From positions 1 to 37,766 of the forward strand of contig CALVPX010000014.1 of the NCBI GenBank assembly GCA_944354265.1: a stretch of DNA of 37,766 nucleotides, in the 5' to 3' direction. Positions 28,551 to 34,491 of the stretch are shown here, piece by piece. Below the pieces are notes generated by a model. The model made no database searches, had not been told where the DNA came from, and worked only from the letters and a program-made list of their open reading frames with translations. The first letter of the stretch is position 1; every line of letters starts with the position of its first letter. Made by a program: the position numbers and the translations under genes. This DNA is from an uncultured Clostridia bacterium (GTDB lineage: Bacteria > Bacillota > Clostridia > Christensenellales > Borkfalkiaceae).

Positions 28551-28970
28551 ATGCGCGCTTTGAAACTTGGAGCATTAATGATAATTGCCGCGGCGGTGTG
28601 TGCGGCGGCGGTGTCGCTGCCAAAGCACACCGCATTTGAGTGCGGCGAAAGTTACACATTCTATTTGGGGAGCTCCTCCTCCAACTGCCGCGTCATGACC
28701 GTAGACGACAATGCCGGTCTTGTGCTGCTGACCTTAAAGGACGTCCGCGGCGAGGCGACCACCTATGCCGAACTCGACGTGGAGAGTTTTTTAAAAGACA
28801 ACGGCGGGCGCATTCTTTTTAAAGAACAACTCTCCGACAGCGTAAATTACTACTGCTCCGCCGATTTGCCGTACGAAATTGAGCTGTACGGGCGCACGGT
28901 CAACCTGCACATATGCATAAAAGATAGCAACGTGACGGTCGGCTCGCCCATTATTTTTGGGGGATACTAA
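28551..28970 (+). CDS. Small exported or membrane-anchored protein of unknown function
   Basis: I do not recognise the family. The 139-residue product has a hydrophobic N-terminal segment (about 5-22, LGALMIIAAAVCAAAV) acting as signal peptide or anchor, then a soluble beta-rich domain with four Cys in the mature part (FECGES, SNCRV, YYCSA, LHICI) that could form disulfides. It ends IIFGGY. AAGGAG lies 7 nt before the ATG. It resembles the small secreted proteins often found near sporulation genes in this group, but I have no firm evidence. Confidence 0.75.
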   Translation: MRALKLGALMIIAAAVCAAAVSLPKHTAFECGESYTFYLGSSSSNCRVMTVDDNAGLVLLTLKDVRGEATTYAELDVESFLKDNGGRILFKEQLSDSVNYYCSADLPYEIELYGRTVNLHICIKDSNVTVGSPIIFGGY

Positions 28971-32966: not shown

Positions 32967-33232
32967 GTCATTTCGACCGAAGAGAGGCGGCGAAGCCGAC
33001 GAACAAAGCGGAGAAATCCCCCAAACGAAGTTACAATTCTTGCCCCCCTTGTGTAAAGGGGGGATCAAAGGGGGGATTGTAGGCGGCGAGCCGCCGTAGA
33101 AATTAAAGAAAAGACAATCCCTCAGGCACGCTTTGCGTGACAGCTCCCTTTACACAAGGGAGCCAAAGTGAGAGACTGCGTTCACGCAGATTTCTCCATG
33201 CGTTCGCTGTCGCTCACTTAGTCGAAATGACA
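32967..33232. repeat. TCATTTCGA repeat (R6) with an R4 element inserted
   Basis: The outer arms GTCATTTCGACCGAAG...GGAGAAATCCCCC and GATTTCTCC...TAGTCGAAATGACA form one R6 copy. The R4 element at 33043-33164 sits in its centre, between AACGAAGT and AGACTGCG, which are adjacent in the uninterrupted copy at 9039. This is a clear nested insertion. Confidence 0.8.
33043..33164. repeat. Hairpin-ended inverted-repeat element (R4) without gene, inverted
   Basis: It begins CCCCCCTT-GTGTA-AAGGGGGG, then GGGGGGATTGT, the core AGGCGGCGAGCCGCC, and ends ACAATCCCTCAGG ... CTCCCTTTACACAAGGGAG. It has both ends complete and a ~33-bp core where the copy at 15162 has the DUF559 gene. Confidence 0.8.
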
Positions 33233-33389
33233 TAGGGGGAGTATGCGGCGGGCTTAGTCAAAATGACAAAAAGGGCGCAAAACAGGATATCGATAAAAAA
33301 GTAATGTTTTAAATTTGAGGTTTGGGGGTATATTACAGGCGACGGGAGGGTAAAAAAGGTCTCCCGCGGGGCGCGAAAATTAGCGCAAT

Positions 33390-33488
33390 TAACAAAAGAC
33401 GCAGAGCTTTTGTTAGAAAATGAAAATTTTTGTTAATTATGAAAAGTTGTAACAAAAAAATTACAAATAAAATGAAAGTTAACAAAAA
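33390..33488 (+). promoter_or_regulatory. Five TAACAAAA boxes upstream of the micropeptide promoter
   Basis: TAACAAAAG at 33390 with its inverse CTTTTGTTA at 33407, TTTTTGTTA at 33427 with TAACAAAAA at 33450, and TAACAAAAA at 33480. They form two inverted pairs and a single box, 70-170 bp upstream of the -35. This looks like a multi-site operator; the regulator is unknown. The stretch 33233-33560 has no gene. Confidence 0.5.
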
Positions 33489-33559
33489 TTATCGGCATTA
33501 TCATAAAATAGTGTTAGAAAGTAACAGAAATCAAATTTTAAAAATTTTTTGCAATGTTA

Positions 33560-33588
33560 TTGACTAACAAATTTTCATATGCTATACT
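33560..33588 (+). promoter_or_regulatory. Promoter of the micropeptide cluster
   Basis: TTGACT (33560-33565), 17 bp, TATACT (33583-33588) with TGC before it (extended -10): one of the best promoters in the window. Predicted start near 33595. The leader has a GAAATCAGG/CCTGATTTC hairpin (33596-33621) and a second nested stem (TGCGG/CCGCA, about 33645-33660) before the first ribosome-binding site. Confidence 0.8.
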
Positions 33589-33698
33589 GCAAGCGAAATC
33601 AGGAAAGAACCCCTGATTTCCATACAACAAGATGACAGGGGCGTGCGGGGATAACCGCAGCGCCAACAAATAACCCCTAAAAAAGTGAGGTAATAATT

Positions 33699-33791
33699 AT
33701 GGATATGTACACCTATTTAACTCAGCCTGCAGCATTGTTCTGCATGATGTACTGCGAAAGAGTTAAGGAAGTAGAAAGAGAAAACAGATAA
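33699..33791 (+). CDS. Micropeptide 1 of the tandem cluster
   Basis: A 30-residue open frame starting MDMYTYLTQP, with a central hydrophobic stretch holding two Cys (ALFCMMYC) and a charged C-terminus ending EVERENR. AGTGAGG lies about 9 nt upstream. It is the first of three short frames on one predicted transcript. It shares only the beginning (MDxY) with the other two. No family is known to me. It could be a precursor peptide, a leader peptide or a small regulatory protein; no signal peptide or modification enzyme is visible. Confidence 0.6.
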   Translation: MDMYTYLTQPAALFCMMYCERVKEVERENR

Positions 33792-33894
33792 CTTTAAAAC
33801 AAAATTAACTTTAAAAACATTGCTACAACGATTTAAGTTGCGCCGGACACAGACCGGCAGCGACGGCAAATACCTTTCAAGGAGGTACGAGATT

Positions 33895-33990
33895 ATGGAT
33901 ATTTATGAAAAATTAAACCAAATTGACGACGAAAGGACGGCTTACGGCGTTAATCCCCTTTCGTATGTAGTTCTCGACTGCGCACGCTGA
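33895..33990 (+). CDS. Micropeptide 2, PLSYVxLDCAR family
   Basis: A 31-residue frame, MDIYEKLNQI at the start and GVNPLSYVVLDCAR at the end, with a perfect AAGGAGG site 8 nt upstream. Its C-terminal 14 residues match micropeptide 3 at 12 positions while six of the shared codons differ synonymously (Gly, Leu, Ser, Tyr, Ala, Arg), so the peptide sequence, not the DNA, has been preserved. The N-terminal half is acidic and probably helical. A single Cys lies third from the end. Function unknown. Confidence 0.75.
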   Translation: MDIYEKLNQIDDERTAYGVNPLSYVVLDCAR

Positions 33991-34064
33991 TAAGCGCGGC
34001 GGGTTGAAGAGCGCAGAGTAACTAAGACACAACTATTGAGACGCATCTTAAAGGAGGCATTTAT

Positions 34065-34163
34065 ATGATCGATTTTTATGAAGAAATCGCACAGCTTGAC
34101 AGCGACAAGAATGAGATCGGTGTTTCGCCCCTCTCATACGTCACTCTCGACTGCGCTAGATAA
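34065..34163 (+). CDS. Micropeptide 3, PLSYVxLDCAR family
   Basis: A 32-residue frame, MIDFYEEIAQLD at the start and GVSPLSYVTLDCAR at the end, with AAAGGAGG 7 nt upstream. It is a diverged paralogue of micropeptide 2. The spacing between the two frames (74 nt) contains no other signal. The cluster is closed by the terminator at 34213. The constant Cys-Ala-Arg end with a variable middle recalls processed or exported signalling peptides, but no protease, transporter or maturation gene lies nearby. Confidence 0.75.
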   Translation: MIDFYEEIAQLDSDKNEIGVSPLSYVTLDCAR

Positions 34164-34212
34164 TTAATGAAAATTGTATTAACGGACGATAAATTTAGTC
34201 AATAATTGAGTG

Positions 34213-34249
34213 GCGGGCGCGCACGGCAAAGTGCGCGCCCGCTTTTTTT
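34213..34249 (+). terminator. Terminator of the micropeptide cluster
   Basis: A perfect 12-bp GC-rich stem (34213-34224 with 34231-34242) with a GGCAAA loop and seven T. Confidence 0.9.
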
Positions 34250-34262
34250 GTAATAAATTTAA

Positions 34263-34457
34263 GTGAAGTATGCGGAAAAACTCCGCATGTGAAGTAGCCA
34301 CCTGCGCTGTGAAGTATAGGCCACATGGCCTATGTGAAGTTTGCCCGCCCTTCGGCGGGCAAGTTATGGTAAAAAATAATCTATACCGCCACTTGCGCCG
34401 CAGGCGCAAACTTCACTGCCTGCAACTTCACACATTGCCGCAGGCAATGTACTTCAC
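34263..34457. repeat. GTGAAGT hairpin array, complete copy (R3)
   Basis: GTGAAGT at 34263, 34289, 34309 and 34334 separates palindromes (ATGCGGA/TCCGCAT; AGC/GCT; ATAGGCC/GGCCTAT; TTGCCCGCC/GGCGGGCAA), followed by GTTATGGT. The mirror arm has ACTTCAC at 34410, 34425 and 34451 with TTGCGCC/GGCGCAA and ACATTGCC/GGCAATGT hairpins. It lies between the micropeptide terminator and the lysR promoter. Confidence 0.8.
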
Positions 34458-34491
34458 TTTACCGTGCAAAACTATACTCTGCCACAAATTA

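What the first reader, a model, noticed from the sequence alone, without database searches (positions are those of the whole stretch)
33595..34249. Transcription unit of three ~30-residue peptides, two sharing GVxPLSYVxLDCAR
Seen: an excellent extended -10 promoter, three short frames each with a good ribosome-binding site, and a perfect terminator, with no longer gene inside. Micropeptides 2 and 3 share 12 of their last 14 residues while six shared codons differ synonymously, which indicates selection on the peptide. All three start M(I)DxY. I know no family with this C-terminus. Candidate roles are a self-signalling peptide, a precursor peptide or a small protein binding a partner through its Cys-Ala-Arg end. 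It lies between two paralogous alcohol dehydrogenases and beside a LysR gene.
Basis: seen in the sequence. Interest (0 to 1): 0.85.

Follow-up and report, generated by a model that had tools for sequence, protein, structure and literature searches.

The report
Micropeptide regulon under a conserved promoter
The tiny genes are real and belong to a set of very short, fast-changing peptides that one genus of uncultured gut bacteria makes from an almost unchanging, apparently switchable promoter; what the peptides do is not known.

Summary
The window lies in a Candidatus Coproplasma (Borkfalkiaceae) genome. Orthologues of peptides 2 and 3 have pN/pS 0.18; core-peptide relatives occur in 72 of 93 genus genomes, up to five per array.

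The unexpected part is the promoter. A palindrome, TGTTA-N5-TAACA, overlaps the -35 box, and a second copy lies exactly 43 bp upstream in 73 of 75 measured promoters. The pair is in 79 of 93 genus genomes at 2 mismatches; at 1 mismatch, in 7 of 12 genus members and 0 of 384 others of the order. All 84 promoter copies read lead to short ORFs, mostly 29-39 codons, including a second unit in this genome. The peptides form 14 types by my rules, plus five unplaced.

Best reading: a repressor-gated, genus-specific regulon of helical micropeptides acting by binding, with conflict-like payload turnover. Coding, shared promoter and genus restriction are shown; repression, partner, localisation and function are inferred.

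The parts
33479..33511 (+). upstream conserved block (TTAACA...TTATC...ATCATAAAATA)
   Evidence: conserved columns in 66 aligned promoters and in 9 close relatives
33512..33526 (.). distal operator TGTTA-GAAAG-TAACA
   Evidence: palindrome; same element exactly 43 bp above the proximal one in 73 of 75 measured promoters; position
33555..33569 (.). proximal operator TGTTA-TTGAC-TAACA, overlapping the -35 box
   Evidence: mean pairwise identity 0.95 over 66 promoters; position
33560..33588 (+). sigma-A type promoter TTGACT-17-TATACT with extended -10 TG
   Evidence: extended -10 identity 0.94 over 66 promoters
33685..33690 (+). ribosome-binding site of peptide 1 (GTGAGG)
   Evidence: read
33699..33791 (+). 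peptide 1, MDMYTYLTQPAALFCMMYCERVKEVERENR (30 aa)
   Evidence: 42% identical over 26 aa to the peptide of the second unit in the same genome; three similar peptides in G587
33880..33885 (+). ribosome-binding site of peptide 2 (AGGAGG)
   Evidence: read
33895..33990 (+). peptide 2, MDIYEKLNQIDDERTAYGVNPLSYVVLDCAR (31 aa), core type
   Evidence: pN/pS 0.182 over 10 orthologues; family in 72 of 93 genus genomes
34052..34057 (+). ribosome-binding site of peptide 3 (AGGAGG)
   Evidence: read
34065..34163 (+). peptide 3, MIDFYEEIAQLDSDKNEIGVSPLSYVTLDCAR (32 aa), core type
   Evidence: pN/pS 0.182 over 10 orthologues; family in 72 of 93 genus genomes
34212..34243 (+). intrinsic terminator closing the unit
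   Evidence: a terminator was found in 70 of 75 related units

Best explanation
This is one unit of a genus-specific micropeptide regulon. A DNA-binding protein, most likely a repressor because one operator lies on the -35 box of a promoter that looks strong by itself, holds two palindromic operators 43 bp (about four helical turns) apart. When it lets go, one burst of transcription makes one to five peptides of about 30 residues, without evident leader, from near-perfect ribosome-binding sites. The peptides are the product. In the core type, an acidic amphipathic N-terminal helix and a C-terminal helix (PLSYVxLxCAR) flank a Gly-Val-Ser-Pro turn, a helical hairpin that would dock on a cellular partner through its C-terminal end. 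The promoter is fixed and the payload turns over, as expected if the partner or opponent keeps changing (phage, competitor or other conflict). Shown: coding selection on the core peptides, shared dual-operator promoter, its link to micropeptides in every copy read, restriction to the genus among the genomes searched. Inferred: repression rather than activation, high output, helical hairpin, intracellular binding, conflict as driver. The confidence given is for the whole mechanism; for the regulon alone I would say 0.95.
For: Coding: pN/pS 0.182 in two sets of 10 orthologues; other frames 1.5-2.6; lowest of 300 column shuffles 0.43. Spread: 72 of 93 genus genomes; in 38 named loci the only genus name is Candidatus Coproplasma, in four titles. 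Operators: second operator at 43 bp with at most 2 of 10 mismatches in 73 of 75 measured promoters; N4 and N6 centres 0 of 59; pair in 79 of 93 genus genomes at 2 mismatches, reversed-pattern control 2 of 93; at 1 mismatch 7 of 396 in the order, all seven among 12 genus members, 0 of 384 others. Payload: 69 of 71 units have a 25-45-aa ORF with a 5-6-nt Shine-Dalgarno match in the first 500 nt, against 2.0% of 355 shuffles and 3 of 71 on the reverse strand; second and relocated units again hold micropeptides. Helicity: segment moments 8-9 s.d. above shuffles (peptides are related, so not independent). C-terminal box: 97 of 105 core and 17 of 52 non-core peptides; shuffle means 1.1-2.1, maximum 8.
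Against: No regulator was found: the exact operator sites elsewhere in this 86%-complete genome do not precede an evident regulator gene, and of four LacI genes beside secondary units three carry a different repeat upstream and the fourth shows no operator there. The unit on C27 of this genome breaks the spacing rule: its distal site is one base further off with one mismatch, plus an exact site at 116 bp. In G613 the distal site is absent, and G040 and G615 have slot peptides without a recognisable promoter. No partner gene is constant: the commonest neighbour family is in 15 of 24 loci. Repression rests on geometry only. No structure could be predicted. The C-terminal box was defined after seeing the peptides, and 35 of 52 non-core peptides lack it. 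Eight of 93 genus genomes showed no unit.
Confidence: 0.42

Rival explanations
1. Secreted leaderless amphipathic peptides (like phenol-soluble modulins or multi-peptide leaderless bacteriocins), made in bulk and exported by a transporter encoded elsewhere, acting on membranes of competitors or host.
For: Tandem cistrons of about 30 aa without evident leader, good expression signals, payload turnover, amphipathic segments; four types are cationic (C, D, H, I, mean charges +1.8 to +5.0).
Against: Core peptides are acidic (mean charge -3.7, range -9 to -1); among the recurrent neighbour families scanned there is no peptide exporter or immunity gene; no Pfam match.
Confidence: 0.27
2. Type-I-toxin-like peptides that slow the producing cell under stress (compare TisB, 29 aa, LexA-controlled).
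For: Operator-gated promoter driving peptides of about 30 aa; short hydrophobic segments; multiple copies.
Against: Antisense promoter-like sites are at the shuffled rate (0.35 against 0.37 per 500 nt, 71 units; 20 of 71 units have at least one); the core is acidic, with a mildly hydrophobic end only.
Confidence: 0.1
3. Self-signalling peptides: exported, processed and sensed by a receptor.
For: Conserved C-terminal motif, small size, several paralogues per genome.
Against: No receptor, processing protease or peptide transporter among the recurrent neighbour families scanned; the conserved end behaves as an amphipathic helix; many dissimilar types share one promoter.
Confidence: 0.07
4. Precursor peptides of modified natural products (RiPPs), the Cys being modified by enzymes encoded elsewhere.
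For: Short precursor-like ORFs; a Cys somewhere in 102 of 105 distinct core peptides.
Against: Types D, F, H, J and N under the same promoter have no Cys; no modifying enzyme among the recurrent neighbour families scanned; the conserved part is C-terminal.
Confidence: 0.05
5. The RNA or chance ORFs, not peptides, are the functional product (small RNA, leader or attenuator).
For: Compact unit with terminator; 75-104-nt spaces between cistrons.
Against: pN/pS 0.18 and third-position excess of differences; later 5' UTR identity 0.32; no Rfam match in the window at the gathering threshold; in the window no longer gene lies before the terminator.
Confidence: 0.02

Closest known systems
Phenol-soluble modulins of staphylococci (recalled)
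   Same: leaderless, short, amphipathic, several cistrons in a row, one regulator for unlinked units
   Different: core peptides are acidic with a conserved C-terminal motif; a direct sequence comparison was not made; the promoter here has paired palindromes, one on the -35
Multi-peptide leaderless bacteriocins such as aureocin A70 (recalled; only a search listing seen)
   Same: several leaderless peptides of about 30 aa in tandem
   Different: no transporter or immunity gene among the neighbours scanned; acidic core
TisB and other SOS-controlled small toxins (starts of abstracts in a search listing)
   Same: operator-controlled promoter, product of about 29 aa
   Different: several divergent peptides per unit, no excess of antisense promoter-like sites, operator unlike the recalled LexA box
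Sda/MciZ-type small inhibitors of Bacillus (recalled)
   Same: short helical proteins acting by binding a partner in the cytosol
   Different: single conserved genes, not hypervariable sets; homology not tested one to one
lac operator geometry, LacI family (recalled)
   Same: TGTGA-N5-TAACA has the same 5-5-5 layout; paired operators
   Different: no LacI gene beside the array in this window; LacI genes near secondary units do not carry the operator upstream
Genus-specific small-protein families of the global microbiome catalogue (PMC11364881, one passage seen)
   Same: genus-restricted small-protein families are common (52.6 of 96.7 million)
   Different: here many dissimilar types share one conserved promoter; whether these peptides are in that catalogue was not checked

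Membership tests
Any described protein family (Pfam, NCBIfam, PHROGs, PADLOC, PDB sequences) | profile match at curated or convincing E-value | tested here: not met
   (three window peptides); best were weak (Antimicrobial13 E 0.031 in 1 of 40). PADLOC JetB reached E 5e-4 in the best of 9 of 69 members; I take it for chance but did not test it further
Phenol-soluble modulins / leaderless bacteriocins | leaderless short amphipathic peptide | tested here: met
   helical moments above shuffles; absence of a leader judged by eye, no signal-peptide program run
Phenol-soluble modulins / leaderless bacteriocins | cationic character | tested here: not met
   core mean charge -3.7, none above -1; four non-core types are cationic; lysis itself not testable here
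Phenol-soluble modulins / leaderless bacteriocins | dedicated exporter or immunity gene | tested here: inconclusive
   none among the recurrent neighbour families scanned; an unlinked exporter was not searched
Type I toxin-antitoxin | antisense RNA promoter over the toxin gene | tested here: not met
   antisense promoter-like sites 0.35 per 500 nt, shuffled 0.37; a consensus scan, not expression data
LexA/SOS-controlled small peptide | LexA box in the promoter | tested here: not met
   the conserved site is TGTTA-N5-TAACA; the LexA consensus is recalled
Peptide pheromone system | linked receptor and export or processing genes | tested here: not met
   recurrent neighbours are CorA, M1 and M23 peptidases, GntR-aminotransferase regulator, isocitrate dehydrogenase, D-Ala ligase, Mur ligase, YicC, guanylate kinase, TsaD/TsaE, PriA and the like
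RiPP precursor | linked modifying enzyme | tested here: not met
   none among the recurrent neighbour families scanned; unlinked enzymes not searched
Candidatus Coproplasma genus trait | present in the genus, absent from sister genera | tested here: met
   core 72 of 93 genus genomes; operator pair at 1 mismatch 0 of 384 other genomes of the order; no array after the M23 gene in 20 loci of 15 other genera

The most novel reading that the evidence does not exclude
A kind of system not described before: one regulator and one almost invariant dual-operator promoter act as a fixed delivery platform, within a bacterial genus, for a rapidly replaced payload of leaderless micropeptides of some 14 sequence types, several converging on an aromatic-hydrophobic C-terminal helix ending in Arg, which dock on cellular or invader proteins in an arms race. 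New peptide genes are recruited to, or evolve beyond recognition under, the same promoter.
Probability: 0.35. Interest if true: 0.88.

Novelty: new variant of a known kind. Interest (0 to 1): 0.72.

Why it matters
Small proteins are usually found one family at a time by sequence similarity. Here the conserved thing is the promoter, and it pulls together peptides that similarity searches would not connect. It gives a direct handle, a 58-bp operator pair, for finding the units in a genome, for pulling down the regulator, and for asking why peptides of about 30 residues are replaced so fast under fixed control.

Tried and rejected
Rejected. (1) The ADH/LysR neighbourhood as context: that dehydrogenase family is in 4 of 24 loci. 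(2) LacI genes beside secondary units as the regulator (L316, L329, L331 orthologous; L330 another LacI; Pfam, for L316 and L330): the first three have TTTGTGCATTTG-type repeats upstream, and no operator lies before any of the four. (3) Rex: its recalled site has an N6, not N5, centre. (4) Weak order-wide hits of the core profile: 12 genomes outside the genus, E 0.005-0.05; of 8 loci read none has a tandem array. (5) Viral origin: 0 exact promoter matches, and 12 peptide-pattern stretches with none confirmed, in viral contigs. (6) A resemblance to a formate acetyltransferase chain (8id0, E 0.62), dropped as chance.

Not followed. In the family search at 3 mismatches the promoter pattern hit 48 of 53 genus members and also 22 of 248 others, the latter with 2 (G060, G107) or 3 mismatches; those were not read. 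Weak 3-mismatch hits inside the genus (for example G572, G104:C52, G025:C1), the second operator pairs counted in G623 and G625, and matches beyond the printed list were not read.

Limits. Promoters (76, at most 4 mismatches) came from 95 chosen stretches; 19 had none, some because the contig ends. One promoter at 4 mismatches was dropped. M23 loci read: 16 of 17 in core-less genomes, 20 of 24 in other genera; in the latter I found three short ORFs with a strong ribosome-binding site, none in an array. Types come from pattern rules of my own and some may be distant relatives; LLWY peptides of G587 and G594 seen were lost by my terminator finder, which also missed the ORF of G621 (seen). Fifteen of 75 units hold a same-strand ORF over 60 codons; most look like frame extensions around the peptides, which I did not test. 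In G602 and G609 they are genes lying behind a hairpin and their own promoter-like sequence. Eight genomes (G073, G568, G572, G574, G575, G578, G583, G624) stay undecided; the G572 operator-pair match lies in GC-rich DNA and looks spurious.

Full report
What was claimed and what is there. All are present. The promoter begins slightly upstream, with the -35 box at 33560. Seven of the 12 shared C-terminal codons of peptides 2 and 3 differ synonymously, not six. In 33589-34249 there are two ORFs of 25-45 codons with a 5-6-nt Shine-Dalgarno match; dinucleotide shuffles average 0.038 and 1 of 500 reaches two. The promoter scan alone is not above chance (4 sites against 3.0), and two operator-like sites in the window alone occur in 16 of 100 shuffles. 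The case rests on comparison between genomes.

Relatives. The window is contig C14 of a 1.75-Mb genome, 86% complete. Searching 201 genomes of its family with peptide 3 gave matches in 26, of which 24 are of one genus (24 of 29 searched); the other two (E about 0.5, inside frames of over 300 codons) are noise. A profile of 40 peptides (A2) found the family in 72 of 93 genus genomes, 48 of 61 among those at least 90% complete. In the order (396 genomes) 9 genus genomes gave strong hits and 12 other genomes E 0.005-0.05; the eight of those loci that I read held no array. In 38 named loci four titles say Candidatus Coproplasma and the rest name no genus.

The core peptide. Consensus MxIYExLNxLDxxxxxxGVSPLSYVxLxCAR (69 sequences). 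Arrays hold up to five copies, as in G116. Orthologues of peptides 2 and 3 in 10 genomes each have pN/pS 0.182, with differences piled on the third codon position (568 of 863 and 638 of 935). The same DNA in the other frames gives 1.5-2.6; 300 column shuffles have medians 0.84 and 0.88 and a lowest value of 0.43. Selection is therefore on the peptide. For peptide 1 the evidence is thinner: a weaker ribosome-binding site, one relative in this genome at 42% over 26 residues and three similar peptides in G587.

The promoter. Aligning nine close relatives showed long conserved stretches of upstream DNA. The motif is a palindrome TGTTA-N5-TAACA, once over the -35 box (TGTTATTGACTAACA) and once upstream. 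It occurs in 47 of 59 upstream regions of at least 250 nt, and never with a 4- or 6-nt centre. Of 76 promoters with at most 4 mismatches, taken from 95 stretches, 75 could be measured and 73 have the second palindrome exactly 43 bp upstream with at most 2 of 10 mismatches. The two exceptions are G613 and the second unit of this very genome; there a one-mismatch site lies one base further off, by my count of the sequence, and an exact site lies at 116 bp. Over 66 promoters, mean pairwise identity is 0.95 in the proximal operator, 0.94 in the extended -10, 0.81 in the distal operator and 0.32 in the later 5' UTR. The pair at 2 mismatches is in 79 of 93 genus genomes, the reversed pattern in 2. 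At 1 mismatch it is in 7 of 396 genomes of the order, all seven among the 12 genus members searched and none among 384 others; the reversed pattern is in 2, both of the genus. With 3 mismatches the promoter signature alone also turns up in 22 of 248 other family genomes, at 2-3 mismatches, as a loose sigma-A pattern may.

The payload. Reading downstream of 75 promoters gave 151 ORFs, most of 29-39 codons, 136 with a 5-6-nt Shine-Dalgarno match, and a terminator in 70 units. In the first 500 nt, 69 of 71 units carry such an ORF of 25-45 codons, against 2.0% of 355 shuffles and 3 of 71 on the reverse strand. The 21 genomes without the core peptide are informative. I read the M23-peptidase slot in 16 and found divergent micropeptides with a strong ribosome-binding site in five and with a weaker one in a sixth, G184. 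Seven others carry the promoter elsewhere, again before a micropeptide (G564, G565, G566, G581, G590, G592, G595). Thirteen of the 21 therefore have a unit, which makes 85 of 93 genomes; eight are undecided. Two of the slot cases, G040 and G615, have no recognisable promoter. This genome has a second unit on contig C27. Secondary units in G584, G604, G616 and G621 encode further micropeptides, the G604 one from a GTG start. In all, 84 promoter copies were read (75, the G621 ORF; six; two; one) and each leads to at least one short ORF. The G104:C26 copy ends at its contig edge. In G602 and G609 longer genes follow behind a hairpin and a promoter-like sequence of their own.

Types and a possible common end. 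By my own rules 158 peptides fall into 14 types and five unplaced: an acidic core (mean charge -3.7), cationic types such as MFIAKLLGNMYENIERRCMSGNLDLKTTARFYLALSNI, and short ones such as MRFIHWLRYIGSLLTPAKSKKN. Several end alike (SYVALNCAR, VYLALTNAR, FYLALINAR, WYLLSVNR). A pattern for this, set after seeing the peptides, fits 97 of 105 core and 17 of 52 non-core peptides, against shuffle means of 1.1-2.1 and a maximum of 8; suggestive only, since peptides are related. The end segments of core peptides keep helical periodicity (moments 0.335 against 0.233 +/- 0.012, and 0.383 against 0.291 +/- 0.010). No signal-peptide program was available, so 'leaderless' is by eye.

Neighbours and regulator. 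In 24 loci the commonest neighbour families are in 10-15. Representatives scanned against Pfam are housekeeping or general genes: CorA, M1 and M23 peptidases, a GntR-aminotransferase regulator, isocitrate dehydrogenase, D-Ala ligase, Mur ligase, hydrolase, acetyltransferase, TsaD/TsaE, YicC, guanylate kinase, PriA, an ECF transporter component; two recurrent families have no match. This looks like a fixed slot without a functional theme. In 20 loci of 15 other genera the slot holds no array. Exact operator sites elsewhere in this genome do not precede an evident regulator. LacI genes next to four secondary units looked promising, but three carry other repeats upstream and none the operator. 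The regulator is unknown.

What it most likely does. The promoter looks strong by itself and one operator covers its -35 box, so repression is the simplest reading, with two operators about four helical turns apart for cooperative binding. The peptides are under purifying selection within lineages (shown for the core) and replaced between lineages. I favour intracellular binding effectors whose targets change, with secreted amphipathic peptides as the main rival. Function is inferred; the regulon is shown.

Known work. No convincing match in Pfam, NCBIfam, PHROGs or PDB sequences. PADLOC JetB matched 9 of 69 members, E 5e-4 at best, which I treat as chance. Six papers in the library mention Coproplasma; by titles and abstract starts none is about small proteins. 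Searches pairing small-protein terms with Clostridia, with the family or with conserved promoters gave one unrelated paper and none, and the operator halves with 'operator' and 'repressor' gave none; exact wording matters in such searches. Genus-specific small-protein families are in themselves common (PMC11364881, one passage). What is unusual here is one promoter for many types.

Noticed in passing
L316, L329, L331: A LacI-family gene (342-345 aa) upstream of a secondary micropeptide unit has repeated TTTGTGCATTTG motifs before it, probably its own operator.
   Followed up: partly
G056:C31:15411-15444, G025:C1:132565-132598, G158:C48:4610-4643: An identical 34-bp promoter-like sequence (TTTTATTGACAAACAGAAATGGATATGATATAAT) occurs in three different genera of the family, possibly a shared mobile element.
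   Followed up: no
window 34255-34460: Intergenic stretch between the terminator and the LysR gene with several short palindromes separated by TGAAGT-like repeats, unlike the array.
   Followed up: no
window 28551-28970: A 139-aa protein with a hydrophobic start, in 15 of 24 loci of the genus, has no Pfam match.
   Followed up: partly
L139, L140, L184: G573 and G174 carry extra core-peptide copies at contig ends, so some genomes seem to have several arrays that assembly has broken.
   Followed up: partly
window 33000-33240: Repetitive-looking intergenic DNA (CCCTTGTGTAAAGGG-like segments) before the array, resembling a scattered repeat element.
   Followed up: no
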